Source: Bacillota bacterium (GTDB lineage: Bacteria; Bacillota; Sulfobacillia; Sulfobacillales; Sulfobacillaceae). From it: 53,589 nucleotides of DNA. How positions within the stretch are numbered: the stretch's first letter is position 1; every line of letters starts with the position of its first letter. Made by a program: the position numbers and the translations under genes. Below, piece by piece: positions 20,139-50,571 of the stretch. The stretch spans positions 1 to 53,589 of the forward strand of contig JAKACM010000023.1 in NCBI GenBank assembly GCA_021821465.1, in the 5' to 3' direction. Below the pieces are notes generated by a model, which was given only the letters and a program-made list of their open reading frames with translations, was not told the origin of the DNA and ran no database searches.

Positions 20139-20211
20139 AGACGTAGGGGAATAGGGCGGCCCCAAGTTTAGGGGTGGAAGATGGGTTGTCAAAAAAGGGG
20201 GAGGATGCACG

Positions 20212-24595: not shown

Positions 24596-24626
24596 TTGAC
24601 AGGCGACTTCTTAAGAACCGGAATAA
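24596..24626 (+). promoter_or_regulatory. Candidate promoter of the acyl-CoA ligase gene
   Basis: A perfect TTGACA (24596-24601) is followed after 18-19 nt by a weak GAATAA-type -10 box (24619-24626 area). It lies 30-60 nt upstream of the TTG 24656 start and would leave a short leader. It supports that start against the in-frame ATG at 24575. Confidence 0.4.
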
Positions 24627-24655
24627 ACAAATCTTGTGAGGTAAGGAGGGAGAAT

Positions 24656-32521: not shown

Positions 32522-33507
32522 CAACACATACCAAGATGATTGAGCCTTCTGCGGCGGAAGACGTGACCAGGATTTTAGGGAAACCGGGCTCCAAAATATT
32601 TGGGGGAGGCACGGATTTGGTGCCGAACCGGACATGGGGTCTCGACACGTCTCCCACGTGGGTTCAACTCCGCAGAGTTCCTGAAGCGAGCTTAATCTCT
32701 TCGGACGGGGAGGGAAGGTGGTCCATCGGAGCAGCCCTGACTCTTCAAGCCGTCCTGGAACACCCTCAACTCTGTGCATCATATCCTCTGCTTGCCGACG
32801 CCATTAGGGTCGTGGCCACCTATGAAATTCGCAATCAAGCCACTATCGGCGGCAATCTCTGTTTGGATACCCGATGCCGGTTTCGTAACCAGCCGCCGAT
32901 CTGGCGCTCGGGTCTGGATCCCTGTTTCAAGTCGGGGGGCACGCGGTGTTATGCCGCCCCCAGGAGTTCACAGTGTGTTGCTATTTTTTCGTCGGATACG
33001 GCTCCTGCCTTTATTGCCTTGGGAGCACAACTCAAAGTTCAGAGCCAAAACAATCCGCGGTGGATCGAGGCTTTGGATCTGTACACGGGGGACGGCGATC
33101 ACCATTTGGCGCTGGAAACGGGAGAGTGGATCGAAACCATCCGGTTGCCCAGCTCACCGCCCTTAGGGGTGTTTGACAAATGGCGAATCAGAGAGGGCAT
33201 TGATTTTCCCGAGGCGAACCTGGCGATCACGGTGGTGCCCAGGGAGAATTCGCGGGAAGTGCGCATGGTTGTGGGAGCAATGGGATCCGGGCCGATTCGT
33301 CTTAGGACGTCGGAAAGACTATTGGCCGAAGGGGTGTGGGATGACGATAAGCTGTTTCTTGCGGCTCATATGGTTACCGGTTCTATCCATCCCTATGACA
33401 ATGGACAAATGGGAGTGGTGGGTCGCAAGCGCGCGGCAGAGCACCTCCTTTACCGGGCTCTGGAGAAATTACGCACCATGATGGGAGAGAAGGGAGAGGA
33501 AGCATGA
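32518..33507 (+). CDS. hcrB: 4-hydroxybenzoyl-CoA reductase, beta (FAD, 4Fe-4S) subunit
   Basis: A 329-residue FAD subunit with KIFGGGTDLVP and TIGGNLC FAD-binding segments. Between about residues 115 and 155 it has an inserted loop with C115, C120, C136, C144 and C153. The last four are spaced 16-8-9, the pattern of the extra [4Fe-4S] cluster known only from HcrB-type subunits, where it allows low-potential electrons to be fed inward. This loop is the best evidence that the complex is a reductase and not an aldehyde oxidase or CO dehydrogenase relative. ATG 32518 overlaps hcrA; the stop overlaps the next gene. Confidence 0.9.
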   Translation: MTTHTKMIEPSAAEDVTRILGKPGSKIFGGGTDLVPNRTWGLDTSPTWVQLRRVPEASLISSDGEGRWSIGAALTLQAVLEHPQLCASYPLLADAIRVVATYEIRNQATIGGNLCLDTRCRFRNQPPIWRSGLDPCFKSGGTRCYAAPRSSQCVAIFSSDTAPAFIALGAQLKVQSQNNPRWIEALDLYTGDGDHHLALETGEWIETIRLPSSPPLGVFDKWRIREGIDFPEANLAITVVPRENSREVRMVVGAMGSGPIRLRTSERLLAEGVWDDDKLFLAAHMVTGSIHPYDNGQMGVVGRKRAAEHLLYRALEKLRTMMGEKGEEA

Positions 33508-34730
33508 GTTGGGCAGAAAGGGTCCTGGCGCAAAAAGCCAACCGAAGTCATGTAAACGCGGGGGAGTATGTGGTGGCCCGTCCCGATGCTTATATGATGC
33601 ACGATATTTTTGCGACCGACGTTCTTGAACTTCTGGAGAAAAGCGGAATAGAGCGGATTGACGATCCCAATCGTGTCAATGTGGTGTTTGATCACATGGT
33701 GCCGGCTCCTTCGGAATATGCCGCGACCCATCAGAGAAAAGCAAGAACCTTGATTCAAAAATACGGCATCGAGCATTTTTTCGACATGGGTCGGGGAATT
33801 TGCCATCAAGTGATGGTGGAGGAGAATTTGGTCAAAGAAGGAGATCTGGTCGTAGCCACCGATTCCCATACCACAACCTATGGGGCATTGGGTGCTGTGA
33901 GTGCCGGCATCGGATCCACGGAGATGGCTTATGCTCTCGCAACCGGAACCTTGTGGTTCAAAGTTCCGGAAACGGTATCGATTTGGCTCGAGAATCAATG
34001 GCATGAGAGTGTCTGCGGCAAAGACCTCATTCTCTCGTTGATGAAAACGATCGGATCCGATAGCGCACAAAATCGCTCCTTGGAATTTCGGGGGCCGGGT
34101 GCCGCGGCAATGCCCTTGGCCGGCAGGTTGACTATTGCCAATATGGGCGTGGAAATGGGGGCGAAATTCGCGCTCTTTCCTCCTCAGCAAGAGTCTCAGG
34201 CGAGCGGTCCTTATTCCCTCGAGTATTCCTTGGATCTTTCTGGGTTGGAACCCATGGTAGCCCTGCCTCATCATGTGGAAAATGTCGCCCGGGTGGCAGA
34301 TTATCAAGGACTTGAAATGGACCAAGTCTTTATCGGCTCTTGCACCAATGGGAGAATCGAAGATTTACGAGACGCTCAGAGAATTCTCGGTGGTCGGCAT
34401 ATTGCGCCGCAAGTACGGCTCATCGTGACTCCGGCATCAAGTGAGGTCTACCGGCAAGCTTTGCACGAAGGCATCCTGGAAGATTTGATTCAAGCAGGCG
34501 CCATTATTGAAGGCCCGGGCTGCGGTCCCTGTTTTGGGGGACATATGGGACTTTTGGCGGCCAAGGAGCGCTGTCTTGGAACCCATAACCGAAACTTTCA
34601 AGGACGCATGGGCAGCCTCGAAGCCGAAATCTACCTGGCATCTCCTCTTACCGCCGCGGCCACTGCGTTAACTGGCGTATTGACTGATCCTCGGGATGTA
34701 TTGGGCTTAAGCCGGGAGGTAATTCAATGA
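33504..34730 (+). CDS. Aconitase-family dehydratase, large subunit (LeuC-like)
   Basis: The 408-residue protein has the aconitase/isopropylmalate dehydratase architecture: VVFDHMVPAPSEYAA, DMGRGICHQVMVEE, ATDSHTTTYGALGAVSAGIGSTEMA, and [4Fe-4S] ligands in GSCTNGRIEDL and GPGCGPCFGG. It resembles LeuC, homoaconitase and dimethylmalate dehydratase; these cannot be separated by eye. ATG 33504 overlaps hcrB by ATGA, so it belongs to the hcr operon, far from any leucine genes. I infer a dehydration of an arylalkyl malate (for example benzylmalate to benzylmaleate) in aromatic catabolism. Confidence 0.8.
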   Translation: MSWAERVLAQKANRSHVNAGEYVVARPDAYMMHDIFATDVLELLEKSGIERIDDPNRVNVVFDHMVPAPSEYAATHQRKARTLIQKYGIEHFFDMGRGICHQVMVEENLVKEGDLVVATDSHTTTYGALGAVSAGIGSTEMAYALATGTLWFKVPETVSIWLENQWHESVCGKDLILSLMKTIGSDSAQNRSLEFRGPGAAAMPLAGRLTIANMGVEMGAKFALFPPQQESQASGPYSLEYSLDLSGLEPMVALPHHVENVARVADYQGLEMDQVFIGSCTNGRIEDLRDAQRILGGRHIAPQVRLIVTPASSEVYRQALHEGILEDLIQAGAIIEGPGCGPCFGGHMGLLAAKERCLGTHNRNFQGRMGSLEAEIYLASPLTAAATALTGVLTDPRDVLGLSREVIQ

Positions 34731-35239
34731 AGGATCTCTCTATGCGTCATCAAGGCAGAGCATGGGTTTTCGGTGATAACATTTCCACCGATCTGCTCTC
34801 TCCCGGGCATTATGTTCACGATCCAATGGACGTGCGTCTTAAGCACGTATTGGAATCCGTTCGCCCGGATTTTGCCTCAGGGGTCAGGGAGGGCGATATT
34901 GTGGTCGCGGGCAAGAATTTTGGCTGTGGGTCCAGTCGGGAATCGGCTCCCATGCATCTGAAGGATTTGGGTGTCGCCGGGGTTATTGCCCAGTCCTTTG
35001 CCCGAATATTTTCGCGAAATGCATTAGCCATAGGACTTGCGGTGCTGAGTTGCCCGTCAATAGGCGGCCGGGTGCAGGAGGGCGAGCAGATTTTGTTCGA
35101 TCTTCGGGCCGGCGAGGTGATTTTGACGGATGGATCGCGTCTGAAGTCGGAAAGATTGCCCGATCAAATGCTGGAAGTGCTGAATAAGGGCGGAATTATT
35201 CCCATTCTCGAAGAAATCGGACGAAGCATGAGATCTTAA
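34727..35239 (+). CDS. Aconitase-family dehydratase, small subunit (LeuD-like)
   Basis: A 170-residue swivelling-domain subunit with FGDNISTDLLSPGHYV, VVAGKNFGCGSSRESAPMHLKDLGV and IIAQSFARIFSRNALAIGL, the signature of LeuD and its relatives that completes the active site of the large subunit. ATG 34727 overlaps the large-subunit stop. Substrate specificity in this family depends on the loop between the first two strands, here NISTDLLSPGHYVHDP, which I cannot match to a known specificity. Confidence 0.8.
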   Translation: MKDLSMRHQGRAWVFGDNISTDLLSPGHYVHDPMDVRLKHVLESVRPDFASGVREGDIVVAGKNFGCGSSRESAPMHLKDLGVAGVIAQSFARIFSRNALAIGLAVLSCPSIGGRVQEGEQILFDLRAGEVILTDGSRLKSERLPDQMLEVLNKGGIIPILEEIGRSMRS

Positions 35240-35350
35240 CCGAAAAAGTTGAGTTTCGGAAGAAGAGAGTGGTCGTTGTCCACGACTAAGGATGAGTTTG
35301 GAATTCAAAGACGACACGAGCAAAAAAATAATTGATTGGAGGGAACAAAA

Positions 35351-36640
35351 TTGGCGATGACCCAGATAGACGAAGAGCGCTTTAGCCGTGATTTCGTGGA
35401 GATGAAGGCTGTAGAGGACTTTCGGTCCTTTATCGGGCGTGTGAAGAAGTCCGTTCCATTTTATCAAGGCAAGCTCGCGGGGATAGATCCGGAGTCGATT
35501 CGCACCCCGGACGACATTTCCCGCTTACCCTTTACCAACAAGGACGATTTGCGCGAGGGCTATCCCTTTCAAATGCTGGGCGTGAATATGTCCCAGGTCC
35601 AGGAAATTCACGCCACCTCGGGAACCAGCGGATCGGCCGTGGTCGCAGCCTATACGGCCAATGACCTGAAACTCTGGGGAAAGGCCATGGCCCGGGTTTT
35701 CAGCCGAGCCGGAGTCGGCCCCGATGATGTGGTGCATAACGCCTATGGCTACGGACTCTTTACCGGGGGGCTGGGAATGCATTACGCCGCTTTGGAAGTT
35801 GGGGCTGCCGTGGTGCCAATGTCGGGAGGATACACCCAAAGACAGGTGAAGATGCTGAAGGATTTAGGTGCGACGGTCATTTGTTCCACTCCGTCTTATG
35901 CCCAGCATATTGCGGAGGCCATGGAGGAAATGGGTGTGAGCCGTGACGATCTCCGTCTCAAAGTCGGCATTTTCGGGGCCGAGTCATGGTCGCAAGAAAT
36001 GTGTCGTGAACTTGAAACGCAATTGGGGATTAGCGCATTGGATGTGTACGGATTAGCCGAAATAATCGGGCCGGGGGTGGCCAGTGAATGTCTTGCTGGT
36101 CACGAGGGACTTCATATGGCCGAAGACCTCTTCTATTTTGAAGTGGTGAATCCTGATACCGGCCGTCCGGTTCCCGAAGGCGAGAGTGGAGAATTGGTCC
36201 TGAGTTCGCTCAAGCGGGAAGCCACACCGATTATGCGCTACCGGACCAAAGACATTACCCGCGTTCTCCCCGGCCCCTGTCCCTGCGGACGAACGACTCG
36301 CCGTATCGATCACATCAAAGGACGCGCGGACGATATGTTTACCTTGCGCGGCGTTAACTTGTTCCCCAAAGAAATCGAATCGGAACTTTTGCGGATTGAA
36401 GAATTGGCCCCGGTGTTTCAATTGATTTTGGACCGGAATTCTGCGCTCGATGTTTTGGAGGTGCATATCGAGCCTAAAGACGGGGACGTCCTTCATGAGC
36501 ACCTGATCACAAAAGTCAAAACCCATTTGAACCGGACCTTGGGAATCAACGTAATGGTATCCGTGAAGGAACCGCATTCGATTCCCCGAAGCGAAGGCAA
36601 GGCCGTTCGTTTAGTGGATCGCAGGAAACTGATTCGATGA
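35351..36640 (+). CDS. paaK: Phenylacetate-CoA ligase family protein
   Basis: The 429-residue enzyme has the PaaK P-loop ATSGTSGSAVVAAYT, the GAESWSQEM region, the hinge MRYRTKDITRVLPGPCPCGRTTRRI with zinc-like cysteines, GRADDMFTLRGVNLFPKEIE and the C-terminal IPRSEGKAVRLVDRR with catalytic Lys. Length matches phenylacetate-CoA ligases (about 430). TTG 35351 is chosen because GGAGGG ends 7 nt upstream; ATG 35357 is an alternative. It would activate phenylacetate or a related arylacetate. The CoA ester can be linked to phenylpyruvate by the IorAB enzyme encoded downstream. Confidence 0.85.
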   Translation: MAMTQIDEERFSRDFVEMKAVEDFRSFIGRVKKSVPFYQGKLAGIDPESIRTPDDISRLPFTNKDDLREGYPFQMLGVNMSQVQEIHATSGTSGSAVVAAYTANDLKLWGKAMARVFSRAGVGPDDVVHNAYGYGLFTGGLGMHYAALEVGAAVVPMSGGYTQRQVKMLKDLGATVICSTPSYAQHIAEAMEEMGVSRDDLRLKVGIFGAESWSQEMCRELETQLGISALDVYGLAEIIGPGVASECLAGHEGLHMAEDLFYFEVVNPDTGRPVPEGESGELVLSSLKREATPIMRYRTKDITRVLPGPCPCGRTTRRIDHIKGRADDMFTLRGVNLFPKEIESELLRIEELAPVFQLILDRNSALDVLEVHIEPKDGDVLHEHLITKVKTHLNRTLGINVMVSVKEPHSIPRSEGKAVRLVDRRKLIR

Positions 36641-36792
36641 AGACAAAAGACAAAGGCGGGCGAGACGTCAAGGGGAAAAAACTTGTGGGGTATGCCTCTT
36701 TTTTCTTCCCCCAGAGCATGATGCCAGCAAGTCAAGAGGATGATGCAAAGGGCTTAGGCAAACAGAGCAGATGCATGCTTGTGTGCCCAATA

Positions 36793-36831
36793 CGTGACAG
36801 ATACGATCAACGTGATGCATAAAGTGTCACG
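36793..36831. promoter_or_regulatory. Inverted repeat upstream of the LeuA-like gene
   Basis: CGTGACA (36793-36799) and TGTCACG (36825-36831) form a perfect 7-bp inverted repeat 25 nt apart within the 228-nt gap between paaK and the LeuA-like gene. It may be an operator or two half-sites around a promoter. Confidence 0.4.
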
Positions 36832-36868
36832 CAACGAACCTTGAGCATTACGAAAGGGGGAGTGTGTC

Positions 36869-38113
36869 GTGAAAGAATCACTCTTGTACGACTGGAACCA
36901 AGTGGGGTCATTAACGGCTGATTTTAGAGCCCCTGCTAAGCTGGAATTGAACGACGAAACGTTGCGTGACGGTTTGCAAAGTCCTTCGGTACGCCAGCCT
37001 TCCCTAGATGAAAAAATCGAGTTTCTCGGTCTTTTGCCGAGACTCGGCATTCATGCTGCGAATATTGGATACCCCGGTGCCGGCGAAAGTGCCTATCAAG
37101 ATGTGGTGCGATTAGCCCGGCTTATTTTGCGGGAACATCTGAACATTGAGCCTAATTGCGCCGGCCGAACTCACTTAGCCGATTTAAACCCGATTCTTAA
37201 GGCATCCCAGGAAGCAGGTATCCGGATTGAGGCCGCTTTGTTTTTAGGTTCGAGCGCGATTCGTCAATGGGTGGAGGGTTGGGAAGGGCCCAAACTGCTC
37301 CGCACGATCCAAGACAGCGTCAAAACGGCCGATAAAGAGGGTCTCGATGTGATGTTTGTGACCGAGGATAGTACCAGGGCCAGACCCGAGGATTTGGAAG
37401 CCATGTACCTGGCGGCTGCGGAGGCCGGAGCCACTCGCTTTTGTGTAGCGGATACCGTGGGTCATGCCACTCCGGTCGGCACACAACGGGTGGTCGGATT
37501 TGTGAAAAGTTGTCTCACTCAACACGGATTTGATCCGATCATTGACTGGCATGGGCACCGTGATCGGGGACTCGATGTGATCAATGCTTTAGCTGCTTTT
37601 TCAGCGGGAGCCACCAGGGTGCACGGGTGTGCTCTCGGTATTGGTGAACGAGTCGGCAATGCGCCCATGGACACGATTTTGGTCAATCTGGTCTTATTGG
37701 GATGGATGCAGCAGGATTTGACTCAACTTCCCGCCTACTGTCATTTAGCCTCGGCCATGACTCAAGTTGAGATTCCCAGAAATTACCCGGTCATGGGAGA
37801 AGATGCCTTCAGCACGAGTACCGGAGTCCATGCCGCCGCAGTCATTAAAGCCTATACCAAAGGGGAGACATGGCTGGCGGATCAAGTGTATAGTGCTGTT
37901 CCCGCATCTTTGGTCGGCCGGCATCAGGAAATTTTGGTCGGCCCCATGAGTGGACGTTCGAATGCCGAATTCTGGCTTCAGAACCATGGACTCGACGCCA
38001 CGCCGGCTCGCGTTGATGCGGTGATGAAAGCGGCGAAAACGACGTCCAAAGTTCTCAGTGCCGATCAAATCCGTCAAGTATTGGGACAACTGGAGACGCC
38101 CCGAGGAGCGTGA
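36869..38113 (+). CDS. LeuA/homocitrate synthase-family acyltransferase
   Basis: A 414-residue DRE-TIM metallolyase with ELNDETLRDGLQSPSV at the start of the barrel, the metal-binding HxH in IIDWHGHRDRGLDVINAL, GERVGNAPMDTILVNL and STSTGVHAAAVIKAYTKG. It condenses acetyl-CoA with a 2-oxoacid in known relatives (isopropylmalate, citramalate, homocitrate and benzylmalate synthases). The C-terminal regulatory domain of leucine-pathway LeuA is absent. No leucine or lysine genes are nearby, and a 2-oxoacid derived from an aromatic amino acid, such as phenylpyruvate, is the best fit to context. It starts at ATG 36869 (codon shown as GTG in the preceding bases gives gggggagtgtgtc GTG); the start is the first in-frame codon after GGGGGAG. 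Confidence 0.75.
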   Translation: MKESLLYDWNQVGSLTADFRAPAKLELNDETLRDGLQSPSVRQPSLDEKIEFLGLLPRLGIHAANIGYPGAGESAYQDVVRLARLILREHLNIEPNCAGRTHLADLNPILKASQEAGIRIEAALFLGSSAIRQWVEGWEGPKLLRTIQDSVKTADKEGLDVMFVTEDSTRARPEDLEAMYLAAAEAGATRFCVADTVGHATPVGTQRVVGFVKSCLTQHGFDPIIDWHGHRDRGLDVINALAAFSAGATRVHGCALGIGERVGNAPMDTILVNLVLLGWMQQDLTQLPAYCHLASAMTQVEIPRNYPVMGEDAFSTSTGVHAAAVIKAYTKGETWLADQVYSAVPASLVGRHQEILVGPMSGRSNAEFWLQNHGLDATPARVDAVMKAAKTTSKVLSADQIRQVLGQLETPRGA

Positions 38114-38174
38114 GTCAGCCCTTAAGGCGTCTCGGAATTCCGATGCAGGGGAAGCGGCATATCAAGAGGGAGGA

Positions 38175-39965
38175 ATGAAGGTGGCGAGTGTGACCAAAAC
38201 ACGGCGGTTGTTATTGGGCAATGAAGCGATTGCTTGGGGCTGTGTGGACGCCAAGGTGCGTGTTGTAACGGGATATCCGGGAACTCCGAGCACGGAAGCA
38301 CTGGAATATCTGGCCAAAATTGCTTCCCCAGCGGTAGAGGTAGAGTGGGCCACCAACGAAAAAGTCGCCATTGACGAGGCACTCGGGGCCGCCTTGTCCG
38401 GAGCAAGAAGTCTGGTGACTATGAAGCACGTCGGATTAAATGTGGCAATGGACGGATGGATGACCAGTCCTTTGGTGGGAGTCAATGCGGGATTGGTGGT
38501 TTTGGTGGCCGATGATCCCGGAATGCACAGTTCGCAAAACGAACAAGACAGTCGATACCTGGGGAGATTTGCCGGCGTGCCGATCTTTGAGCCGTCCGAC
38601 TCTCAGGAATGCTATCAGTTTGTTCGTGCTGCCTTTGAGGCCAGCGAAAAATGGGATTCTCCGGTGATGATCCGCACTACTACCCGTATATCGCATTCGA
38701 GTTCTCCGGTGACATTAGCTCAATCGGAACTTGTGCCCACTAAAGGTTTTCAGCGCAATCCCGGCAAATATGTCATGCTCCCGGTTAATGCCCGTGCCGG
38801 TCGGTTGCGTCATCTCGAAAGGTTGCCAAAGATGGCCCAGTGGGTTGAATCCCATCCCTTCAATCAAGAAGGGATAAGGTCGACTGAAATCGGCATTATT
38901 GCCTCGGGCGCCGCCTATCAATACGTGCGTGATGTGATGCCCGAGGCCAGTGTGCTGAAGCTGGGCATTACCAACCCTCTGCCCGAAAATATGATTCGGA
39001 ACTTTGCCGCAAAAGTCGACCGGCTTCTCGTGGTAGAAGAGTCGGAACCTTATCTGGAAGAGAGCGTCAAAAGCCTGGGCATTCCGGCAGAAGGCAAAGC
39101 CTTCTTCCCTCGTGCCGGAGAATTGTCCTCCGAGTCGGTTCGCAAGGGACTCAAAGGGGCGGGGGTTCTGCCGGATTCTTTGGAAGAGGTGGAGGATTCA
39201 TGGCCTGTGTCCGTTCCAAGACCCCCCTTGTTGTGCCCGGGCTGTCCTCATGTCACGCCGTTTTTAGTCTTGCACGAGATTGGGGCCTACGTGAACGGAG
39301 ATATCGGTTGCTACACCTTAGGGGCCTCAGAGCCTCTTTTGGCGATGGATACCTGCTTGGCTATGGGTTCCAGTATTGGCATGGCGGTGGGCATGGCGAA
39401 AGCGGGGGTCAGGGACAAACCTATCGTGGCGACCATTGGCGACTCAACCTTCTTGCACGGGGGGATCCCGGGGCTCATCGACGCAATGTGGAACAATGCC
39501 GACATTACCGTAATTATTTTGGACAACGGTACCACCGCCATGACCGGCGGCCAGCCTCATCCGGGGACGGCTCACAATGTTCGTGCTGCAGATGTGCCTC
39601 GCATCGACATTGTTGAATTATGCCGTGCAATCGGGGTAGAGCCCGTGGTGGTGGATCCCTATGATGTGGGCGCGACTCACCGCAGTATTCTGGCAGCCAC
39701 AAAAAAGCGTGGTGTGTCGGTAATCATTACCAACCGCCCCTGTGTTCAGGCCCCGGAAAAAATATTCGGACGAAGCTACCAGGTGGAATCACAGCATTGT
39801 GACGGTTGTCAGCTGTGCATGAATATCGGATGTCCGGCCTTGGGATGGGATCTAACCTCGGACGATTTGCGCCGAGTCAGGATTGACTCCGACCAGTGTA
39901 CCGGATGCACAGTATGCGCACAATTGTGCCCGCAATCGGCGATTGTGCCCATCATCCAAGATTGA
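38175..39965 (+). CDS. iorA: Indolepyruvate ferredoxin oxidoreductase, alpha subunit
   Basis: The 596-residue protein fuses the pyrimidine-binding part (LLGNEAIAWGCVDAKV, VTGYPGTPSTEALEYL, VEWATNEKVAIDEALGAALSGAR) with the thiamine-diphosphate-binding part (CPGCPH, GDIGCYTLGASEPL, IGDSTFLHGGIPGLIDAMWNNA, DNGTTAMTGGQPHPG). It ends with a double cluster ferredoxin domain (CDGCQLCMNIGCPALG, CTGCTVCAQLCP). This is the layout of IorA, which acts on arylpyruvates to give arylacetyl-CoA, CO2 and reduced ferredoxin. ATG 38175 lies behind GAGGGAGGA; the longer open frame overlapping the previous gene is not used. Confidence 0.85.
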   Translation: MKVASVTKTRRLLLGNEAIAWGCVDAKVRVVTGYPGTPSTEALEYLAKIASPAVEVEWATNEKVAIDEALGAALSGARSLVTMKHVGLNVAMDGWMTSPLVGVNAGLVVLVADDPGMHSSQNEQDSRYLGRFAGVPIFEPSDSQECYQFVRAAFEASEKWDSPVMIRTTTRISHSSSPVTLAQSELVPTKGFQRNPGKYVMLPVNARAGRLRHLERLPKMAQWVESHPFNQEGIRSTEIGIIASGAAYQYVRDVMPEASVLKLGITNPLPENMIRNFAAKVDRLLVVEESEPYLEESVKSLGIPAEGKAFFPRAGELSSESVRKGLKGAGVLPDSLEEVEDSWPVSVPRPPLLCPGCPHVTPFLVLHEIGAYVNGDIGCYTLGASEPLLAMDTCLAMGSSIGMAVGMAKAGVRDKPIVATIGDSTFLHGGIPGLIDAMWNNADITVIILDNGTTAMTGGQPHPGTAHNVRAADVPRIDIVELCRAIGVEPVVVDPYDVGATHRSILAATKKRGVSVIITNRPCVQAPEKIFGRSYQVESQHCDGCQLCMNIGCPALGWDLTSDDLRRVRIDSDQCTGCTVCAQLCPQSAIVPIIQD

Positions 39966-40004
39966 CGGCAAAAGGAAAGGCCGGGGGAGGGGGACCATCA
40001 GAAT

Positions 40005-42843: not shown

Positions 42844-42845
42844 CT

Positions 42846-43412
42846 GTGTGGAAGAAAGAGATTCGCCTTGCCGGATCCGGAGGCCAGGGTCTTGGACTCG
42901 CAGCCATTGTACTGGCCGAGGCCGCGCTCAAGGCGGGACTTCATGTCAGCACCTTGCAGTCGTACGGGCCGGAGGCCCGGGGAGGTGCCAGCCGATCCGA
43001 CGTCACTTTATGCGATCAAGAGATTGCTAATCCTTGGTTCTCCAAGCCGAGCGTTCTTCTCGCCTTAAACGAGAAGGCATGGATTAAATATGGCCTCGAA
43101 CTGGCCGAAGAGGACCTGGCGTTGGTGGACAGCGATTGGGTCAAGCTCCCTGAACGAAGGACCCTTTCTCAGATCCCATTGGAGCGTATAGCCAAAACGG
43201 AACTGAGGGAAAAACTGGCCGCGAATATGGTGGCCGTGGGTGCTCTCGCGGCACTGGTAGGGCGCATTCCGTTGCCCATCTTGGTTGAGGCGGCTCGCGT
43301 TCGTGCACCCAAAGGATTTGCCGGAATTAATCAGGAGGGCATCAAGCGGGGATGGGAATTGATGGAGGACTTAAAGGGAGGTGTCGATAATGGAGGCGCA
43401 CCAGGTGCTTGA
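42846..43412 (+). CDS. korC: 2-oxoacid:ferredoxin oxidoreductase, gamma subunit
   Basis: A 188-residue gamma subunit with EIRLAGSGGQGLGLAAIVLAEAA, LQSYGPEARGGASRSDVTL and NMVAVGALAALVGRI, typical of the CoA-binding gamma domain. It starts at GTG 42846, 2 nt after korB, with GGAGGAGG upstream, and runs 23 nt into the CoA-transferase gene. With korA and korB it forms a complete alpha-beta-gamma enzyme; the delta ferredoxin is apparently fused to IorB. Confidence 0.85.
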   Translation: MWKKEIRLAGSGGQGLGLAAIVLAEAALKAGLHVSTLQSYGPEARGGASRSDVTLCDQEIANPWFSKPSVLLALNEKAWIKYGLELAEEDLALVDSDWVKLPERRTLSQIPLERIAKTELREKLAANMVAVGALAALVGRIPLPILVEAARVRAPKGFAGINQEGIKRGWELMEDLKGGVDNGGAPGA

Positions 43413-44619
43413 CGGGATTAGGGTGCTGGATATATCCCAGGGCGCAGCCGGACCCAGTGCCGGCATGGTCCTAGGGGAATATGGAGCCACGGTGATTAAA
43501 GTGGACCCTCCGGAAGGCGACTGGGGAAGACGGCTTGGCCCTCCTTTTCTCGGTGAGGATGCGGCGGCATATATAGGGATGAACCGGAACAAACGTTCCG
43601 TGGTGATCAATTTGAAAACGGCGCAAGGTCCCCAAGTATTCAAAGCTCTTGCGGCAGAAAGCGACGTGATACTGGAAAGCTTTCGCCCAGGGGTCATGGA
43701 TCGGCTGGGTATTGGCTATTCTGTGCTCTCGCATCAACATCCGGACTTGATTTACTGTGCGATTTCCGCATTTGGTACCACAGGGCCCTGGCGGGATAAA
43801 CCGGGAGTTGACGGAATTATTCAAGCGATGAGTGGGTTAATGAGTGTAACCGGCGAGCCGGGGGGTCAGCCGGTAAAAGTCGGGGTGCCTGCCGCCGATA
43901 TGACGGCGGCTTTAATCGCCGTCCAAGGCATTTTGCTGGCCCTATTGGCACGTGCCCGGAGTGGCAAAGGGCAGCGAGTCGACGTCTCTCTTTTAGACAG
44001 TTTGTTTTTTTTCCAGACGGTGCCTTGGTCCATGTTCATGGTCAGTCATCAATCTCCGGGAAGACAGGGCAGTGCCGCCCCCTATTCGGCACCCAACGAA
44101 GTCTATCCCACCAAAGACGGCTTTCTGATGGTAGCCGCCTATTGGCCCCAAAGGTGGTCGCGGCTGACCCAAGTGTTGCAATGTCCGGAACTGGATCGGG
44201 ATCCGAGATTTTCTGAGGTGGGCGATAGAGTCGTTCACCGTGCGGAACTCTTTCGATTACTGGCGGAAAAGTTTCGAACGCGAAGCACCGAAGAATGGCG
44301 CCAGATCTTGGAAAAGGAGGATATTTTGTGTGCTCCCGTCATGGACTACGATCAATTGGCACAATTAGACCATGTGATGACACCCGAAAGTTTTCCCCGT
44401 CTGGAACATCCCGATTTGGGACTGACCCCCGGTGTGGGGATGCCGGCACAACTGGCGGACATGCCGCCCAAAGCTAGGTGCCCGGCTCCATTAGTTGGGG
44501 AACATTCCCGGGAGATCTTACAAGAATGGGGTTATGCTTCCCACGTCATTGATGACCTGATTGACCAAGGTGTTGTGTGGGAGAGGCCTCGGGCCTTAGC
44601 TAAAAGATCCCAAGACTAG
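43390..44619 (+). CDS. Family III CoA-transferase (CaiB/BbsE-F type)
   Basis: The 409-residue protein has the family signature: LDGIRVLDISQGAAGPSAGM, GATVIKVDPPEGDWGRR, RNKRSVVINLKTAQG, the catalytic Asp in VGVPAADMTAALIA, and SGKGQRVDVSLLDS. Such enzymes move CoA between carboxylates, for example succinyl-CoA to benzylsuccinate in BbsEF. It is the first gene of a run (CoA-transferase, hydratase, SDR, DUF35, thiolase) matching the bbs beta-oxidation set. ATG 43390 has GGGAGG 8 nt upstream. An arylalkylidene succinate such as phenylitaconate is my inferred acceptor; BbsEF uses two genes whereas only one is present. Confidence 0.8.
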   Translation: MEAHQVLDGIRVLDISQGAAGPSAGMVLGEYGATVIKVDPPEGDWGRRLGPPFLGEDAAAYIGMNRNKRSVVINLKTAQGPQVFKALAAESDVILESFRPGVMDRLGIGYSVLSHQHPDLIYCAISAFGTTGPWRDKPGVDGIIQAMSGLMSVTGEPGGQPVKVGVPAADMTAALIAVQGILLALLARARSGKGQRVDVSLLDSLFFFQTVPWSMFMVSHQSPGRQGSAAPYSAPNEVYPTKDGFLMVAAYWPQRWSRLTQVLQCPELDRDPRFSEVGDRVVHRAELFRLLAEKFRTRSTEEWRQILEKEDILCAPVMDYDQLAQLDHVMTPESFPRLEHPDLGLTPGVGMPAQLADMPPKARCPAPLVGEHSREILQEWGYASHVIDDLIDQGVVWERPRALAKRSQD

Positions 44620-44639
44620 GCTATTAGGAGGGGAGAAGT

Positions 44640-45422: not shown

Positions 45423-45461
45423 AACAAAAACCGAAACGATTGCGAAAGGAATTGATTAGGG

Positions 45462-46208
45462 ATGAAGGGATTTGAAGGACGAATAGCCCTTGTGACCGGC
45501 AGCGGCCAAGGGATCGGAGAGGCGATTGCCAAACGTTTGGCATTAGGCGGCGCCTTCGTTGTCCTAAATGATGTGGTGCCCCAAAGAGTAGAGGACGCTG
45601 CTGCCAAGATTGCCCCCGAGGGCCGAGCCGATTATTTCGTCAGTGACATTGCTACCAAAGAAGGGGCCGAGAAGTTGATGGGATATGCTCGGGAGAAATA
45701 CGGGCGGGTAGACATATTGGTGAATAATGCCGGGATCGCAAAAGATCGCTATTTGACCAAGATGTCGGATGAAGAATGGGAAGAGGTAATCCGTGTCAAT
45801 CTGAGCTCCCAATTTTTCACTTGCCGAGCTGCCGGCCGAATCATGATGGAACAAAAATACGGACGCATTATCAATATTGCTTCCCGGGCTTGGTTAGGGG
45901 GCCCGGGACAAGCTAACTACAGCGCATCGAAAGGGGGTGTGGTGAGTTTGACCCGAACACTGGCCTTGGAAATGGGAAAGTTTCAAATCACCAGCAATGT
46001 TGTGGCTCCCGGTTTAATTGACACCCCTTTGTACCGACAGTTAAAACCCGAAGTGCAAGAACGCCTAGCCAAGACCGTTCCCGTGGGTCGGGTGGGAACC
46101 TCGGAAGAGGTGGCGGACAGCGTAGCGTTTTTTGCCGATGATGATGCAGGGTATTTGAATGGCCAGGTTCTTTATGTTTGCGGAGGACGGAGTGTGGGGA
46201 GCTATTAG
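45462..46208 (+). CDS. Short-chain dehydrogenase (3-hydroxyacyl-CoA dehydrogenase type)
   Basis: A 248-residue SDR with the cofactor loop VTGSGQGIGEAIA, NNAGIAKD, catalytic Ser in IINIASRAW and YSASKGG (Tyr, Lys). It is FabG-like in sequence. The Asp after the second strand (VVLNDVVP) favours NAD over NADP. Located between the hydratase and the thiolase, it would oxidise the hydroxyacyl-CoA, in the model 2-(hydroxyphenylmethyl)succinyl-CoA to benzoylsuccinyl-CoA (BbsCD step; those are two SDR genes, here one). Confidence 0.8.
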   Translation: MKGFEGRIALVTGSGQGIGEAIAKRLALGGAFVVLNDVVPQRVEDAAAKIAPEGRADYFVSDIATKEGAEKLMGYAREKYGRVDILVNNAGIAKDRYLTKMSDEEWEEVIRVNLSSQFFTCRAAGRIMMEQKYGRIINIASRAWLGGPGQANYSASKGGVVSLTRTLALEMGKFQITSNVVAPGLIDTPLYRQLKPEVQERLAKTVPVGRVGTSEEVADSVAFFADDDAGYLNGQVLYVCGGRSVGSY

Positions 46209-46277
46209 ATGGAGTGCATGAGTCGAGTTTTCGGCTTAGTCTCAAAGGCAAAAAAGTCTTAAAAGGGGTGAAAAAAT

Positions 46278-46697
46278 ATGGCACAGATTCAAGAAGGAGT
46301 AAATGGTCCGGATCACTATGAACTGGATGGAAAGGCTGTTTATTTGCTGGGAAGTCAGTGTAATGCCTGTGGGGCGGTATTCTATCCGGAACAACCGGTA
46401 TGCGGACGTTGCGGTCATAGAAGCCACGAAAAAGTGCGACTAGGACCCAACGGCCTTCTTTATACCTGGACTCGGGTTCATCAGTCTACTCCCGAGTTCA
46501 AGACACCTTATGTGCTGAGTTATGTGGATTTTCCGCAAAATGTGCGGGTGTTGGTGCCATTGGTTGACAATGTGGAGCCAAAAGTCGGCATGGAAGTGGT
46601 CTTAACCTTGGCACCGGGTCCAAAACTTTCATCGGAGGGCCAATTCATGGAATTAGTCCATGTGGCACCCGCGACAAAGGAGGGGGAATCACGGTGA
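46278..46697 (+). CDS. DUF35 zinc-ribbon/OB-fold thiolase partner (BbsA-like)
   Basis: A 139-residue protein with an N-terminal zinc ribbon (CNACGAVFYPEQPVCGRCG) and an OB-fold domain (LLYTWTRVHQSTPEF, YVLSYVDFPQNVRVLVPL). Such DUF35 proteins form complexes with thiolases; BbsA with BbsB is the case in anaerobic toluene degradation. It starts at ATG 46278 behind AAAGGGGTG and overlaps the thiolase gene by 4 nt, a strong sign of complex formation. Confidence 0.85.
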   Translation: MAQIQEGVNGPDHYELDGKAVYLLGSQCNACGAVFYPEQPVCGRCGHRSHEKVRLGPNGLLYTWTRVHQSTPEFKTPYVLSYVDFPQNVRVLVPLVDNVEPKVGMEVVLTLAPGPKLSSEGQFMELVHVAPATKEGESR

Positions 46698-47842
46698 TCG
46701 GCAATGGCGTGTATGTGATTGGAGTGGGGATGACATCTTTCGGCAAACATCCCGAAAGTACGGCAGCGGATTTGGCTGCGGAAGCAATATTGGGCGCACT
46801 GGATGACGGAGGTGTCCAAGCTTCAGATATTGAAGCAGCCTGGGTTGGCCATGTCTATCAGGGAATGGCCATGGGTCAGAGGGGCCTCGGTGCGGCCGGT
46901 ATGTCGGGATTGCCTATAACAAACGTGGAAAATGCCTGCAGCAGCGGTTCTACGGCGATTTTCGACGCGGCGACGGCTCTTAAGGCCGGGCTCTATGATG
47001 TGGTTTTGGCTTGCGGAGTGGAATTATTGTCCACGCGATTTCGCGGAGCCTTGGCTCCCGATGAATCGGATATCGAGGCGCAAATAGGACTCACCATGCC
47101 GGCGGTCTATGCCATGCGTGCACGCCGGCATATGGAACAATATGGGACGACGTCCAGAATGCTTGCGGCCATTGCATCTAAGAACAAATTCAATGCCTCT
47201 CTCAATCCTCTGGCTCAGTTCAAGAAACCTGTCTCCGTGGATGAGGTGCTGGCGGGGCGTATGATAGCCGATCCCTTGCATTTGCACGAATGTGCTCCCG
47301 TTTCGGACGGTGCGGCGGCAGTGGTATTGATCAGCGAAAGAAAACTTAATCAATATGGCGCCTCGCGGGCGGTGAAACTTGCCGCTTCCGAATTGCGCAG
47401 CGGCAAGTTGGAAGTGGGACTGCCCGACATGACGATAGAAGATTTGACTTGGCGAACAGCCCAAGCGGCATACCGACACGCAGAATTGGGCCCCGAAGAT
47501 GTAGACATGGCCGAGGTGCATGACTGTTTCAGTATTGCCGAGGCTACGCGCGTGGAGGGGTTGAAACTTTACCCTCTGGGTGAATATCCCGCTCGGGTGG
47601 AAAAGGGTGAGGCCAATTTGAACGGACGGCTGCCGGTCAATATGAGTGGAGGGCTCTTAGGCAAGGGACATCCTCTCGGGGCTACCGGTGTCGCCCAAGT
47701 GATAGAAATCGTCAAACAATTGCGTCACGAAGCAGGGGATAGGCAAATCCAAAATGCCAGAGTTGGTCTGGCGCATTGCCGGGGGGGCAAGGCCAGAGGT
47801 GTGGAAGGAACGGCTTGCACCGTCAATATTCTGACACTTTAA
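46694..47842 (+). CDS. Thiolase (SCP-X/BbsB type)
   Basis: A 382-residue thiolase with the nucleophile in VENACSSGSTAIFDAATAL, the His motif EVHDCFSIAEATRVEGL, GHPLGATGVAQVIE and a C-terminal CRGGKARGVEGTACTVNI. It lacks the classic acetoacetyl-CoA thiolase pattern and belongs to the group that works with DUF35 proteins. GTG 46694 overlaps the DUF35 stop. The inferred reaction is thiolytic cleavage of benzoylsuccinyl-CoA to benzoyl-CoA and succinyl-CoA. Generic 3-oxoacyl-CoA thiolysis is possible. Confidence 0.85.
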   Translation: MIGNGVYVIGVGMTSFGKHPESTAADLAAEAILGALDDGGVQASDIEAAWVGHVYQGMAMGQRGLGAAGMSGLPITNVENACSSGSTAIFDAATALKAGLYDVVLACGVELLSTRFRGALAPDESDIEAQIGLTMPAVYAMRARRHMEQYGTTSRMLAAIASKNKFNASLNPLAQFKKPVSVDEVLAGRMIADPLHLHECAPVSDGAAAVVLISERKLNQYGASRAVKLAASELRSGKLEVGLPDMTIEDLTWRTAQAAYRHAELGPEDVDMAEVHDCFSIAEATRVEGLKLYPLGEYPARVEKGEANLNGRLPVNMSGGLLGKGHPLGATGVAQVIEIVKQLRHEAGDRQIQNARVGLAHCRGGKARGVEGTACTVNILTL

Positions 47843-47856
47843 GTGAGGCGACTAGG

Positions 47857-49023
47857 ATGGCCATTGAAGCGCAAATCCCCACGTTATTAGGGAGTCAGGA
47901 ACTCATTGGCGTTCGCTGTACGGTTATGCGGGGAGGTACCAGCAAAGCGGTTTTTTTGCCGGCCGAGGTGGTACCCGAATCGGAATCTGACCGAAAACGG
48001 TTCCTTTTGGCACTGATGGGCAGTCCGGATCCTCGTCAGATTGACGGATTAGGCGGTGCCGATCTCTTGACCACAAAAGTCGCGATTATCGGAGGGCCTA
48101 CGCGTAAGGACGCGGATTTGGATTACACTTTTGCCCAGGTATCAGTGACTCGCCCCGAGGTATATTTCGACATGAATTGCGGGAACATTTCCTCGGCAGT
48201 GGGGGTCTATGCCCTGGAAAAAGGTCTCATACCGGCCCAAGAACCTCTCACTCGCATCCGTATTCACAATCGCAACACTCATACCATTCTTTTGAGTGAT
48301 GTTCCCGTTAAAGGGAATCATGCCTTGATCGAGGGCGATTGCATGGTGGACGGTGTGCCGGGAACCGGGGCCGGGGTGAAAATGGACTACCATCTCACCG
48401 CTGGGGGTGCGACCAGATCGCTGTTGCCAACCGGCCATGCCCAGGATCTGATTGCGGTCAAGGGATGGGGGGAGTTCAGAATCTCGGTGGTCGACATTGC
48501 CAATGTGGGCTTTATGGTGTCGGCCGAAGATGTCGGGTTGGACCCATCCAAGCTCCCAAAGGTACCGGATCAGGAACTGTTGCGTAAAATGGACGCCATC
48601 CAAAGGGCTGTGGCCCGCAATCTGGGTATGGCCGAAGGGCAGTTGACACCCATTCCCGTCATTGTCGCGCCGCCCCATGATTTTGCTACCGTTGTTGGAG
48701 GCATTGCCATAAAGGGTCATCAAGTGGACATCGTCTCGGAGGTAATTGGGGGACAGCCACTCACACTTCATAAGGCATTTCCCGGAACCACCAGCGTGAC
48801 TCTTGCCGTAGCGGCAAAAATTCCGGGAACGGTGGCGTACGAACTCACTCGGAAAGAGGACACGCACTCGGTTCGGATAGGACATCCCAGCGGCCAGATG
48901 GAGGTAGGGGTCCGTGTCTCTTTCTCCGATGAAGGTTTTCCGGTCGTTAAGGAGGCGTCCTATCTTCGGACGGCTCGTTTGCTTATGGACGGCATCACGT
49001 ATTTGAGGCGTTCCAGGCTTTAA
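47857..49023 (+). CDS. prpF: PrpF-family carbon-carbon double-bond isomerase
   Basis: The 388-residue protein has the PrpF signatures CTVMRGGTSKAVFLPAE, IDGLGGADLLTTKVAIIG, FDMNCGNISSAVGVYALE, GVPGTGAGVKMD and the C-terminal RTARLLMDGITYL. The family includes aconitate isomerases, 4-oxalomesaconate tautomerase and 3-methylitaconate delta-isomerase, all of which shift a double bond next to carboxylates using the MRGGTSK Lys and NCGN Cys. ATG 47857 gives the normal length; the open frame continues into the thiolase. With a LeuCD-like dehydratase in the same region, an isomerisation of benzylmaleate to phenylitaconate is inferred. Confidence 0.85.
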   Translation: MAIEAQIPTLLGSQELIGVRCTVMRGGTSKAVFLPAEVVPESESDRKRFLLALMGSPDPRQIDGLGGADLLTTKVAIIGGPTRKDADLDYTFAQVSVTRPEVYFDMNCGNISSAVGVYALEKGLIPAQEPLTRIRIHNRNTHTILLSDVPVKGNHALIEGDCMVDGVPGTGAGVKMDYHLTAGGATRSLLPTGHAQDLIAVKGWGEFRISVVDIANVGFMVSAEDVGLDPSKLPKVPDQELLRKMDAIQRAVARNLGMAEGQLTPIPVIVAPPHDFATVVGGIAIKGHQVDIVSEVIGGQPLTLHKAFPGTTSVTLAVAAKIPGTVAYELTRKEDTHSVRIGHPSGQMEVGVRVSFSDEGFPVVKEASYLRTARLLMDGITYLRRSRL

Positions 49024-50419: not shown

Positions 50420-50571
50420 AGAGGGAAAGAAGGGAGCCAAAGTGGACAAGAATGACCCCAAGGCAGCACAGAAAGAGGGGGGTATAACTGTCTGGTCACC
50501 GGTCTCATAGTTCCCACATGGATTTGAGGAGTCCCGGTATTGGGGTGACAGAACAAGAAAGAGGGGTCTTT

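What the first reader, a model, noticed from the sequence alone, without database searches (positions are those of the whole stretch)
33504..49023. Possible new route from arylpyruvate plus acetyl-CoA to benzoyl-CoA plus succinyl-CoA
Seen: one region encodes a LeuA-type acetyl-transferring synthase (36869), a LeuCD-type dehydratase (33504/34727), a PrpF-type double-bond isomerase (47857), a family III CoA-transferase (43390), a two-Glu enoyl-CoA hydratase (44640), an SDR (45462) and a BbsAB-like DUF35/thiolase pair (46278/46694). Known: LeuA-like HphA makes benzylmalate from phenylpyruvate; LeuCD dehydrates alkylmalates; PrpF relatives (Mii) interconvert alkylmaleates and itaconates; Bbs enzymes turn phenylitaconyl-CoA (benzylidenesuccinyl-CoA) into benzoyl-CoA and succinyl-CoA. 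Inference: phenylpyruvate -> 2-benzylmalate -> benzylmaleate -> phenylitaconate -> its CoA ester -> hydroxy -> benzoylsuccinyl-CoA -> benzoyl-CoA. Carbon balances exactly (9+2 = 7+4). The missing fumarate-adding enzyme, BbsG-type dehydrogenase and LeuB-type dehydrogenase are all unnecessary in this route. 4-Hydroxyphenylpyruvate would give 4-hydroxybenzoyl-CoA, explaining hcr.
Basis: partly seen in the sequence, partly recalled or inferred. Interest (0 to 1): 0.93.

Follow-up and report, generated by a model that had tools for sequence, protein, structure and literature searches.

The report
New route to benzoyl-CoA from arylpyruvates
A conserved bacterial gene set, found in two phyla beside genes that resemble those for aromatic-ring breakdown, is predicted to join the 2-oxo acids of tyrosine or phenylalanine with acetyl-CoA and would, by an itaconate-like detour, cut the product into (hydroxy)benzoyl-CoA and succinyl-CoA, a likely way to degrade aromatic amino acids that we did not find described.

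Summary
Nine genes (LeuA-like synthase, LeuC, LeuD, Mii/PrpF-like isomerase, CoA-transferase, enoyl-CoA hydratase, SDR, DUF35 protein, thiolase) occur together in 18 of 18 genomes reached by handle that carry the synthase at 54% identity or more (Bacillota, Actinomycetota), in several gene orders, 16 times on one contig. No LeuB signature lay in 24 cluster loci from 14 of them. Two clusters lack Ior/Kor, so those are accessory. A 4-hydroxybenzoyl-CoA reductase-like gene is in all 18 genomes (adjacent in 12), a benzoyl-CoA reductase gene in 16; 0 of 4 same-genus genomes without the synthase have the latter. The host holds ordinary leucine, citramalate and homocitrate enzymes elsewhere; no glycyl-radical domain was found. 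The synthase has alanine at a site that published HphA work found important (equivalence inferred). The isomerase's best solved relative is methylitaconate isomerase, the thiolase's is BbsB; most equivalog cut-offs are missed. Added here: the upstream benzoyl-CoA reductase operon and an Ior-ferredoxin/Kor/PaaK module that may feed arylacetates in.

The parts
36869..38113 (+). LeuA-like (DRE-TIM) synthase; predicted arylpyruvate + acetyl-CoA -> 2-arylmethylmalate
   Evidence: HMGL-like Pfam; below the cut-offs of the 19 NCBIfam models listed; AlphaFold pLDDT 92.8, best folds homocitrate synthase 6ktq, MAM 6e1j and IPMS; A98/M162/V164/C192/H252 invariant in 41 of 41 selected sequences
33504..34730 (+). 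LeuC-like dehydratase large subunit; predicted dehydration of the alkylmalate to the maleate
   Evidence: aconitase/IPMI subfamily models above cut-off; SCTN and CGPC motifs 16 of 16 rows
34727..35239 (+). LeuD/DmdB-family small subunit of the same dehydratase
   Evidence: TIGR02087 LeuD/DmdB 167 bits, cut-off 109; GCGSSRE 14 of 15 rows, GVGSSRE in L009
47857..49023 (+). PrpF/Mii-type isomerase; predicted arylmethylmaleate -> arylitaconate (frame open from 47776)
   Evidence: PrpF Pfam 304 bits; best solved relative 3-methylitaconate isomerase 3g7k 278 bits, next 183
43381..44619 (+). family III CoA-transferase; predicted succinyl-CoA-dependent activation of the arylitaconate
   Evidence: CoA_transf_3 408 bits; Asp of the PxxD motif in 18 of 18 rows; best solved SUGCT 9br6 245 bits, benzylsuccinate CoA-transferase 9fn0 147 bits
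44640..45422 (+). enoyl-CoA hydratase with two Glu; predicted hydration of arylitaconyl-CoA (BbsH-like step)
   Evidence: ECH_1 217 bits; both Glu in 18 of 18 rows
45462..46208 (+). SDR dehydrogenase; predicted oxidation to aroylsuccinyl-CoA (BbsCD-like step, single gene)
   Evidence: adh_short_C2 205 bits; YxASK in 18 of 18 rows
46278..46697 (+). DUF35/Zn-ribbon OB-fold protein, BbsA-like thiolase subunit
   Evidence: zf-ChsH2 + OB_ChsH2_C; best NCBIfam match BbsA, 62 bits, cut-off 250; zinc motif 17 of 18 rows
46694..47842 (+). SCP2/BbsB-type thiolase; predicted cleavage to aroyl-CoA + succinyl-CoA
   Evidence: best solved relative BbsB 7pxp 232 bits, SCP2-thiolase 221; Cys motif 18 of 18, HDCF and GHP in the 17 rows that reach them
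29715..33507 (+). hcrC-hcrA-hcrB: 4-hydroxybenzoyl-CoA reductase-like enzyme (gamma, alpha, beta)
   Evidence: TIGR03194 722 bits, below cut-off 994.55; beta subunit best hit 1rm6_B with the Cys-rich insertion
16785..21003 (+). bcrC, bcrB, bcrA, bcrD: ATP-dependent (class I) benzoyl-CoA reductase type
   Evidence: TIGR02263 303 and TIGR02260 316 bits, both best match but below cut-off; CoA_E_activ above cut-off twice
13976..16754 (+). dienoyl-CoA hydratase-like ECH, a second ECH, and a 6-hydroxycyclohex-1-ene-1-carbonyl-CoA dehydrogenase-like protein
   Evidence: TIGR03201 253 bits is the best match of the dehydrogenase, below cut-off; TIGR03189 109 bits is only the eighth best of the first ECH; second ECH 14782-15732
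35336..36640 (+). PaaK-type arylacetate-CoA ligase (accessory, near the core in 12 of 18)
   Evidence: TIGR02155 488 bits, cut-off 646
38058..40880 (+). IorA and IorB with fused ferredoxin domain: aryl-2-oxoacid:ferredoxin oxidoreductase type (accessory, 16 of 18)
   Evidence: TIGR03336 659 bits, above cut-off 651; two [4Fe-4S] motifs in IorB of 15 of 16 rows, one in L011
40865..43412 (+). KorA, KorB, KorC: 2-oxoacid:ferredoxin oxidoreductase type (accessory, 16 of 18)
   Evidence: KorA NF006412 499 bits, above cut-off 411
23554..24663 (-). PaaX-like regulator
   Evidence: TIGR02277 164 bits, cut-off 265
50518..52173 (+). benzoate-CoA ligase family protein
   Evidence: TIGR02262 545 bits, above cut-off 375

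Best explanation
This gene set, conserved across two phyla next to ring-reduction-type genes, is predicted to be a catabolic pathway that would convert an arylpyruvate (most likely 4-hydroxyphenylpyruvate, also phenylpyruvate) plus acetyl-CoA into (4-hydroxy)benzoyl-CoA plus succinyl-CoA. Inferred steps: the LeuA-like synthase makes 2-(arylmethyl)malate; the LeuCD-like enzyme dehydrates it to the arylmethylmaleate; the Mii-like PrpF protein shifts the double bond to give the arylitaconate (benzylidenesuccinate); the CoA-transferase moves CoA from succinyl-CoA onto it; the hydratase, SDR and DUF35/thiolase pair then act as BbsH, BbsCD and BbsAB do on benzylidenesuccinyl-CoA. The carbon balances (9+2 = 7+4) and the succinyl-CoA formed can pay for the next activation. 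The hcr enzyme would remove the 4-hydroxyl group and the bcr enzyme would reduce the ring. Shown directly: the gene content, its recurrence, the conserved catalytic motifs, the co-occurrence with hcr and bcr, the lack of a LeuB signature in the loci scanned, and the separate ordinary leucine genes. Inferred: every substrate, reaction and direction.
For: Nine core genes in 18 of 18 genomes reached by handle, 16 of 18 on one contig, in differing orders. L048 (G068) and L047 (G404) hold the nine without Ior/Kor. Among 61 genomes (own included) the synthase, the thiolase and a PrpF of 68% or more are in the same five. An hcrA-like protein of 658 bits or more in 15 of 15 cluster genomes searched plus G000, G005, G006, where it is adjacent; bcrB in 16 of 18 cluster genomes against 0 of 4 same-genus genomes without the synthase. 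Own genome has separate enzymes passing cut-offs for LeuA, citramalate synthase, LeuC and homocitrate synthase. No LeuB signature in 24 cluster loci from 14 genomes; the motif rang beside the canonical LeuA. PrpF closest to methylitaconate isomerase; thiolase closest to BbsB. Synthase pocket: A98 where 6ktq has His, M162 where 6ktq, 2ztj, 3ivs have Arg and 3rmj Glu, 41 of 41; HphA has Ala73 at the His/Leu site and it matters for specificity (PMC12961565). A MAM enzyme of this family makes phenylalanine-derived elongated products (PMC6603273, passages). A HisC-like aminotransferase lies beside bcr in G404.
Against: No activity is known for any of these proteins. Most assignments are below equivalog cut-offs (BbsA 62 of 250, BbsB 274 of 750, hcrA 722 of 994.55). 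The thiolase scores better against the generic model PRK06064 (336 bits) than against BbsB, and SCP2-thiolase is nearly level in the PDB search (221 against 232). The CoA-transferase is closer to SUGCT than to benzylsuccinate CoA-transferase. Of the five published positions only one (Ala) equals HphA, and the paper says that Ala73 is itself poorly conserved among HphA relatives and that the A73L variant still uses the tyrosine counterpart; H252 equals homocitrate synthase 6ktq; the own NifV-type paralogue has Thr, not Arg, at the M162 site; and around A98 the alignment is gap-free only for 6ktq, the other three references being shifted by a gap. The hcrA search also rang in 4 of 14 control genomes, none over the cut-off, so the 658-bit line is my own. 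Four genomes with 50-52% relatives of the synthase (same pocket residues) lack PrpF and a close LeuC and in the tree group with the Actinomycetota clusters (long branches), so the synthase is not bound to this pathway. G007 and G008 lack bcrB (G007 is 61% complete). The HisC-like aminotransferase passes the HisC cut-off and may be just that.
Confidence: 0.72

Rival explanations
1. Same chemistry, different side chain: the route shortens another 2-oxo acid, such as indolepyruvate or 4-methyl-2-oxopentanoate, to the acyl-CoA two carbons shorter plus succinyl-CoA, and hcr/bcr are neighbours for other reasons.
For: The logic works for any R-CH2-CO-COOH; the pocket residues A98, M162, V164, C192 are not uniquely aromatic-selective. 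IorA passes the indolepyruvate oxidoreductase cut-off.
Against: hcr-like gene in 18 of 18 and bcrB in 16 of 18 cluster genomes, PaaK and benzoate-CoA ligase family neighbours, and the Ala at the presumed HphA Ala73 site point to a phenyl or 4-hydroxyphenyl group.
Confidence: 0.13
2. The LeuA/LeuCD genes perform amino-acid homologation (HphA/HphCD type) and the Bbs-like genes serve a separate pathway that happens to lie beside them.
For: The synthase resembles homologation synthases; a 41% relative in Streptomyces sp. KN37 lies in an NRPS/PKS cluster with an aconitase-family and an isopropylmalate-dehydrogenase-family gene.
Against: No LeuB signature in 24 cluster loci; the two halves stay together in 18 of 18 genomes although the gene order changes; no NRPS among the window proteins scanned.
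Confidence: 0.05
3. A toluene or benzylsuccinate-type pathway whose benzylsuccinate synthase is missing, as a recent paper read bbsA plus bcrBC in UBA5794 actinobacteria (PMC12008989, passages seen).
For: Bbs-like hydratase, SDR and DUF35/thiolase; bcr operon.
Against: No glycyl-radical domain in the window's genome (one genome, 98% complete); no acyl-CoA dehydrogenase and no second CoA-transferase or SDR among the 20 proteins scanned from 29715 to 52173; LeuA/LeuCD/PrpF would be unexplained.
Confidence: 0.04
4. Ordinary biosynthesis: LeuA/LeuCD make leucine, lysine or isoleucine precursors.
For: Family membership only.
Against: Below the cut-offs of the synthase models listed; dedicated copies elsewhere pass theirs; found in 5 of 61 genomes only.
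Confidence: 0.02

Closest known systems
Anaerobic toluene (benzylsuccinate) beta-oxidation, BbsEF-G-H-CD-AB
   Same: Predicted lower half: CoA transfer from succinyl-CoA, hydration, oxidation, thiolysis of aroylsuccinyl-CoA by a DUF35/thiolase pair (pathway as described in PMC10818641, passages seen).
   Different: No benzylsuccinate synthase or BbsG found; one CoA-transferase and one SDR gene instead of two each; the unsaturated acid would be made by isomerisation, not by dehydrogenation.
Homophenylalanine/homotyrosine homologation (HphA, HphCD, HphB)
   Same: Predicted upper half: aryl-2-oxo acid + acetyl-CoA to benzylmalate, then LeuCD-type dehydration (PMC12961565, introduction read).
   Different: No LeuB/HphB-type dehydrogenase found; the maleate would leave to an isomerase; catabolic neighbours instead of an NRPS.
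Dimethylmalate dehydratase + methylitaconate isomerase (Mii) of nicotinate fermentation (recalled, except the PDB name of 3g7k and the LeuD/DmdB family name)
   Same: LeuCD/DmdAB-type dehydratase paired with a PrpF-fold isomerase acting on an alkylmaleate/alkylitaconate pair.
   Different: Substrate would carry a benzyl group, and flux would run from malate to itaconate.
Anaerobic phenylalanine degradation by phenylacetyl-CoA and phenylglyoxylate to benzoyl-CoA (recalled)
   Same: Same start and end compounds.
   Different: That route loses two carbons as CO2; this one would keep them as succinyl-CoA and needs acetyl-CoA.

Membership tests
Bbs benzylsuccinate beta-oxidation | DUF35 (BbsA) + SCP2-type thiolase (BbsB) pair | tested here: met
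   Domains and order present; best solved relative of the thiolase is BbsB; NCBIfam equivalog cut-offs for BbsA and BbsB not reached
Bbs benzylsuccinate beta-oxidation | two-subunit CoA-transferase BbsEF and two-subunit BbsCD | tested here: not met
   one CoA-transferase III and one SDR among the 20 proteins scanned
Bbs benzylsuccinate beta-oxidation | benzylsuccinate synthase (glycyl radical) | tested here: not met
   0 of 1 genome with PF01228; rings in 3 of 14 controls
HphA-type 2-benzylmalate synthase | Ala at the site of HCS His / IPMS Leu (HphA Ala73); a residue shown to matter, not a family signature | tested here: inconclusive
   A98 in 41 of 41, aligned to 6ktq His; HphA sequence not held, its 73-157 spacing (84) exceeds that of 6ktq (60), and the paper reports Ala73 poorly conserved among HphA relatives
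HphA-type 2-benzylmalate synthase | the other four published residues (Asp157, Ala159, Met186, Ser242) | tested here: not met
   M162, V164, C192, H252 instead; Asp157 and Met186 are also poorly conserved among HphA relatives
HphA-type 2-benzylmalate synthase | activity with 4-hydroxyphenylpyruvate/phenylpyruvate | not testable with these tools
   needs assay
Mii/PrpF isomerases | PrpF family with active-site Lys and Cys (roles recalled) | tested here: met
   PF04303 304 bits; Lys in 16 of 16 aligned rows and NCGN or LCGN Cys in the 15 that reach it (read by eye; the strict regular expressions counted 10 and 13 of 16)
Leucine or lysine biosynthesis (LeuA, LeuC, homocitrate synthase) | passes curated equivalog cut-off of the family model | tested here: not met
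   window synthase below all 19 listed; LeuC above subfamily but below the leuC and LEU2 equivalog cut-offs; paralogues pass theirs
4-hydroxybenzoyl-CoA reductase | Cys-rich insertion in the beta subunit ([4Fe-4S] ligand role recalled) | tested here: met
   aligned to 1rm6_B; four insertion Cys in 10 of 11 rows by eye (strict pattern 9 of 11), absent in L018
4-hydroxybenzoyl-CoA reductase | alpha subunit over TIGR03194 cut-off 994.55 | tested here: not met
   722 bits in window; 0 of 19 genomes over cut-off, best 964; 4 of 14 controls ring below it
Class I (ATP-dependent) benzoyl-CoA reductase | four subunits BcrCBAD in one operon | tested here: met
   16785-21003; TIGR02260/02263 equivalog cut-offs not reached

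The most novel reading that the evidence does not exclude
The cluster is a complete oxygen-free pathway for both aromatic amino acids and arylacetates. PaaK activates the arylacetate; IorAB, whose beta subunit carries a fused ferredoxin, runs backwards and carboxylates arylacetyl-CoA to arylpyruvate with reduced ferredoxin and CO2 from the adjacent KorABC; acetyl-CoA then primes the arylpyruvate, and an itaconate-type isomerisation lets a Bbs-like module release aroyl-CoA and succinyl-CoA. Growth on phenylacetate would thus need CO2 fixation, and the two-carbon shortening would conserve carbon as succinyl-CoA. Some 'bbs without bss' genomes may have been misread as toluene degraders.
Probability: 0.35. 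Interest if true: 0.93.

Novelty: new variant of a known kind. Interest (0 to 1): 0.87.

Why it matters
If right, it adds a route into the benzoyl-CoA pathway that begins with a leucine-synthase relative and needs neither a radical enzyme nor oxygen, and it would explain how acidophilic Sulfobacillus relatives and several actinobacterial lineages could use tyrosine, phenylalanine and perhaps arylacetates without oxygen. It could also correct annotations that take bbs-like genes plus bcr as toluene degradation, and it gives two enzyme activities to look for (benzylmaleate/phenylitaconate isomerase, arylpyruvate-specific synthase) with clear assays.

Tried and rejected
Literature (open-licence PMC papers only): benzylmalate with benzoyl-CoA gave 0 papers; phenylitaconate with phenylpyruvate 0; benzylmalate with phenylpyruvate and acetyl-CoA 1, on Cannabis; Sulfobacillus with benzoyl-CoA 4, none on this route by the listing, and in one of them, passages seen, Sulfobacillus thermotolerans Kr1 is listed as carrying the hybrid phenylacetate (paa) pathway, so some relatives have another phenylacetate route; a five-of-six-term search gave 7, none on this route by title and abstract start; bbsA terms gave 9; methylitaconate with dimethylmaleate gave 1, on Ustilago itaconate; six compound names gave 26 papers, 25 listed, by titles plant, oral and medical work, toluene work and one on HphA. 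Subscription journals and preprints are not in that library.

Residue-level support for homocitrate synthase from papers gave nothing on the arginine at the M162 site; that it selects the substrate side chain is taken from the HphA paper's table.

Rejected: toluene pathway; leucine or lysine synthesis; reverse, biosynthetic direction (thiolysis runs toward cleavage; recalled thermodynamics, not tested). The neighbours of the 50-52% synthase relatives: L023 looks like housekeeping in the nine ORFs scanned, L024 gave no family in the one ORF scanned, L025 has hcr-like genes beside the synthase but the contig ends, L022 is 4.7 kb long.

Phylum-wide samples are thin: 3 of 396 genomes of the phylum of G063 (G063 itself among them) and 1 of 249 of the class of G068 (G068 itself) hold the synthase. 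Most of the 120 listed protein homologues have no genomic context here; 32 of them went into the alignment and 20 into the tree.

Full report
What is there. The window comes from a 4.96 Mb, 199-contig genome (completeness 98.16, contamination 5.11). From 13.3 kb to 52.2 kb the window is one aromatic-degradation island: a regulator related to BetI/FadR-type repressors, dienoyl-CoA hydratase-like and 6-hydroxycyclohexene-carbonyl-CoA dehydrogenase-like genes, class I benzoyl-CoA reductase type bcrCBAD, a PaaX-like regulator, hcrCAB, then LeuC-LeuD-PaaK-LeuA-IorA-IorB-KorA-KorB-KorC-CoA-transferase-ECH-SDR-DUF35-thiolase-PrpF-MFS-benzoate-CoA ligase family.

Is the set more than a neighbourhood accident? 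I compared the window's proteins with the loci of the relatives fetched. 'Cluster genomes' are the 18 with a synthase of at least 54% identity that I reached by genome handle: G000, G005-G008, G061-G069, G130, G404, G680, G681. All nine core genes (synthase, LeuC, LeuD, PrpF, CoA-transferase, ECH, SDR, DUF35, thiolase) were seen in 18 of 18, some cut by contig ends (LeuC of G681); in 16 of 18 on one contig, in G062 and G007 on two. In G067 the LeuCD pair lies about 21 kb from the synthase, between hcr and bcr (L116). Loci L007, L008 and L016 belong to further genomes with cut contigs and are not counted, and protein hits without context were not examined. The gene order differs: one co-directional run in the Sulfobacillus group, but PrpF-thiolase-DUF35 divergent from the CoA-transferase-ECH-SDR-LeuCD run in L047, L049, L050, L046 and L048. 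Pairwise distances of the eight partners track the synthase's (r 0.80-0.89, 0 of 2000 permutations), which vertical descent alone could also give. In 61 genomes (own included) the synthase, the thiolase and a PrpF of 68% or more are in the same five; three further PrpF hits (38-47%) are in genomes without the synthase.

Core against accessory. Ior and Kor accompany the core in 16 of 18 (KorC not detected in G066) and are missing from the stretches read in G068 (whole contig) and G404 (C1:500000-538999); elsewhere in those two genomes they were not sought. PaaK is near the core in 12 of 18, all of which also have Ior/Kor; a weaker PaaK (35%) lies near bcr in G130.

What the product should be. 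A protein of the 4-hydroxybenzoyl-CoA reductase alpha type (658 bits or more against TIGR03194) is in 15 of 15 cluster genomes searched and adjacent in G000, G005 and G006; it is next to core genes in 12 of 18. None of the 19 genomes passes the curated cut-off, the same search also rings below it in 4 of 14 control genomes, it is present in 3 of the 4 genomes with 50-52% synthase relatives, and in G066 the best copy is a fragment on another contig while the copy beside its cluster lacks the Cys-rich insertion. BcrB is in 16 of 18 cluster genomes, missing in G007 (61% complete) and G008, in 0 of 4 same-genus genomes without the synthase, and in 2 of 4 genomes with 50-52% synthase relatives. On the cluster's contig bcr lies in G000, G005, G006, G061, G063, G065, G067, G130 and G404; in G064, G680 and G681 it shares a contig with hcr. 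So the set keeps company with enzymes for 4-hydroxybenzoyl-CoA and benzoyl-CoA.

The rest of the chain. PrpF: best solved relative is 3-methylitaconate isomerase (278 bits against 183 for the next). Thiolase: BbsB best (232), SCP2-thiolase close (221). CoA-transferase: succinate-hydroxymethylglutarate CoA-transferase best (245), benzylsuccinate CoA-transferase 147. Catalytic motifs: CoA-transferase Asp, both ECH Glu and the SDR Tyr/Lys in 18 of 18 rows; thiolase HDCF and GHP in the 17 rows that reach them; DUF35 zinc motif in 17 of 18, missing in L017; LeuD GCGSSRE in 14 of 15. LeuB signature: none in 24 cluster loci, which cover 14 of the 18 genomes, by a motif scan whose control found it beside the canonical LeuA; the scan is crude, but the window's 20 cluster proteins were also named without an isopropylmalate-dehydrogenase domain.

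Mechanism. I commit to arylpyruvate + acetyl-CoA -> arylmethylmalate -> arylmethylmaleate -> arylitaconate -> CoA ester (from succinyl-CoA) -> hydroxy ester -> aroylsuccinyl-CoA -> aroyl-CoA + succinyl-CoA. The Bbs steps are as described for toluene in PMC10818641 (passages seen). The substrate is most likely 4-hydroxyphenylpyruvate because of hcr. In G404 a HisC-like aminotransferase lies beside bcr; it may be an aromatic aminotransferase or an ordinary HisC.

Ior, Kor, PaaK. IorB carries a fused ferredoxin domain with two [4Fe-4S] motifs in 15 of 16 rows and one in L011. Two readings remain. Either Ior oxidises surplus arylpyruvate and Kor supplies reduced ferredoxin to benzoyl-CoA reductase (role recalled from Thauera), or PaaK, Ior and Kor together turn arylacetate into arylpyruvate by reductive carboxylation. 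PaaK and PaaX favour an arylacetate feed; nothing here proves the direction.

Limits. Everything functional is inference from sequence. Several equivalog cut-offs are missed, as listed. Four genomes keep a related synthase with the same pocket but without PrpF or a close LeuC. The literature search covers open-licence PMC papers only; within it no such route was found, while one paper reads bbsA plus bcrBC in UBA5794 actinobacteria as toluene degradation (passages), which this pathway may explain; I did not examine those genomes.

Noticed in passing
window 789-10515: Low-GC (0.36-0.40 against about 0.5) block with radical SAM, EF-G-like GTPase, methyltransferase, LD-carboxypeptidase, MFS and ATP-grasp genes; looks like a peptide natural-product and self-immunity island.
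   Followed up: partly
L138:5889-6977 (G404): HisC-like aminotransferase next to the benzoyl-CoA reductase operon of the cluster that lacks Ior/Kor/PaaK; could supply arylpyruvate.
   Followed up: partly
L022-L025 (G070-G073): Synthase relatives (50-52%, same pocket residues) in Planctomycetota, Eisenbacteria and others without PrpF or close LeuC; in L025 beside hcr-like genes; role unknown.
   Followed up: partly
L149:11953-16221 (Streptomyces sp. KN37 plasmid): 41% synthase relative with aconitase-family and isopropylmalate-dehydrogenase-family neighbours inside an NRPS/PKS cluster, likely an amino-acid homologation cassette.
   Followed up: partly
L117:12270-19443 (G068): Second set of CoA-transferase (52% and 32%), ECH (49%) and SDR (35%) genes beside hcr on another contig of the genome whose core cluster lacks Ior/Kor.
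   Followed up: no
window 38058-40880: IorB fused to a ferredoxin domain, conserved in the 16 rows seen, beside KorABC with no separate delta-subunit gene named in the operon.
   Followed up: partly
window 27934-28653: PAS-LuxR-type regulator on the minus strand between the MFS gene and hcr.
   Followed up: no
L139:18166-19707 (G130): UbiD-family decarboxylase between the cluster and bcr.
   Followed up: no
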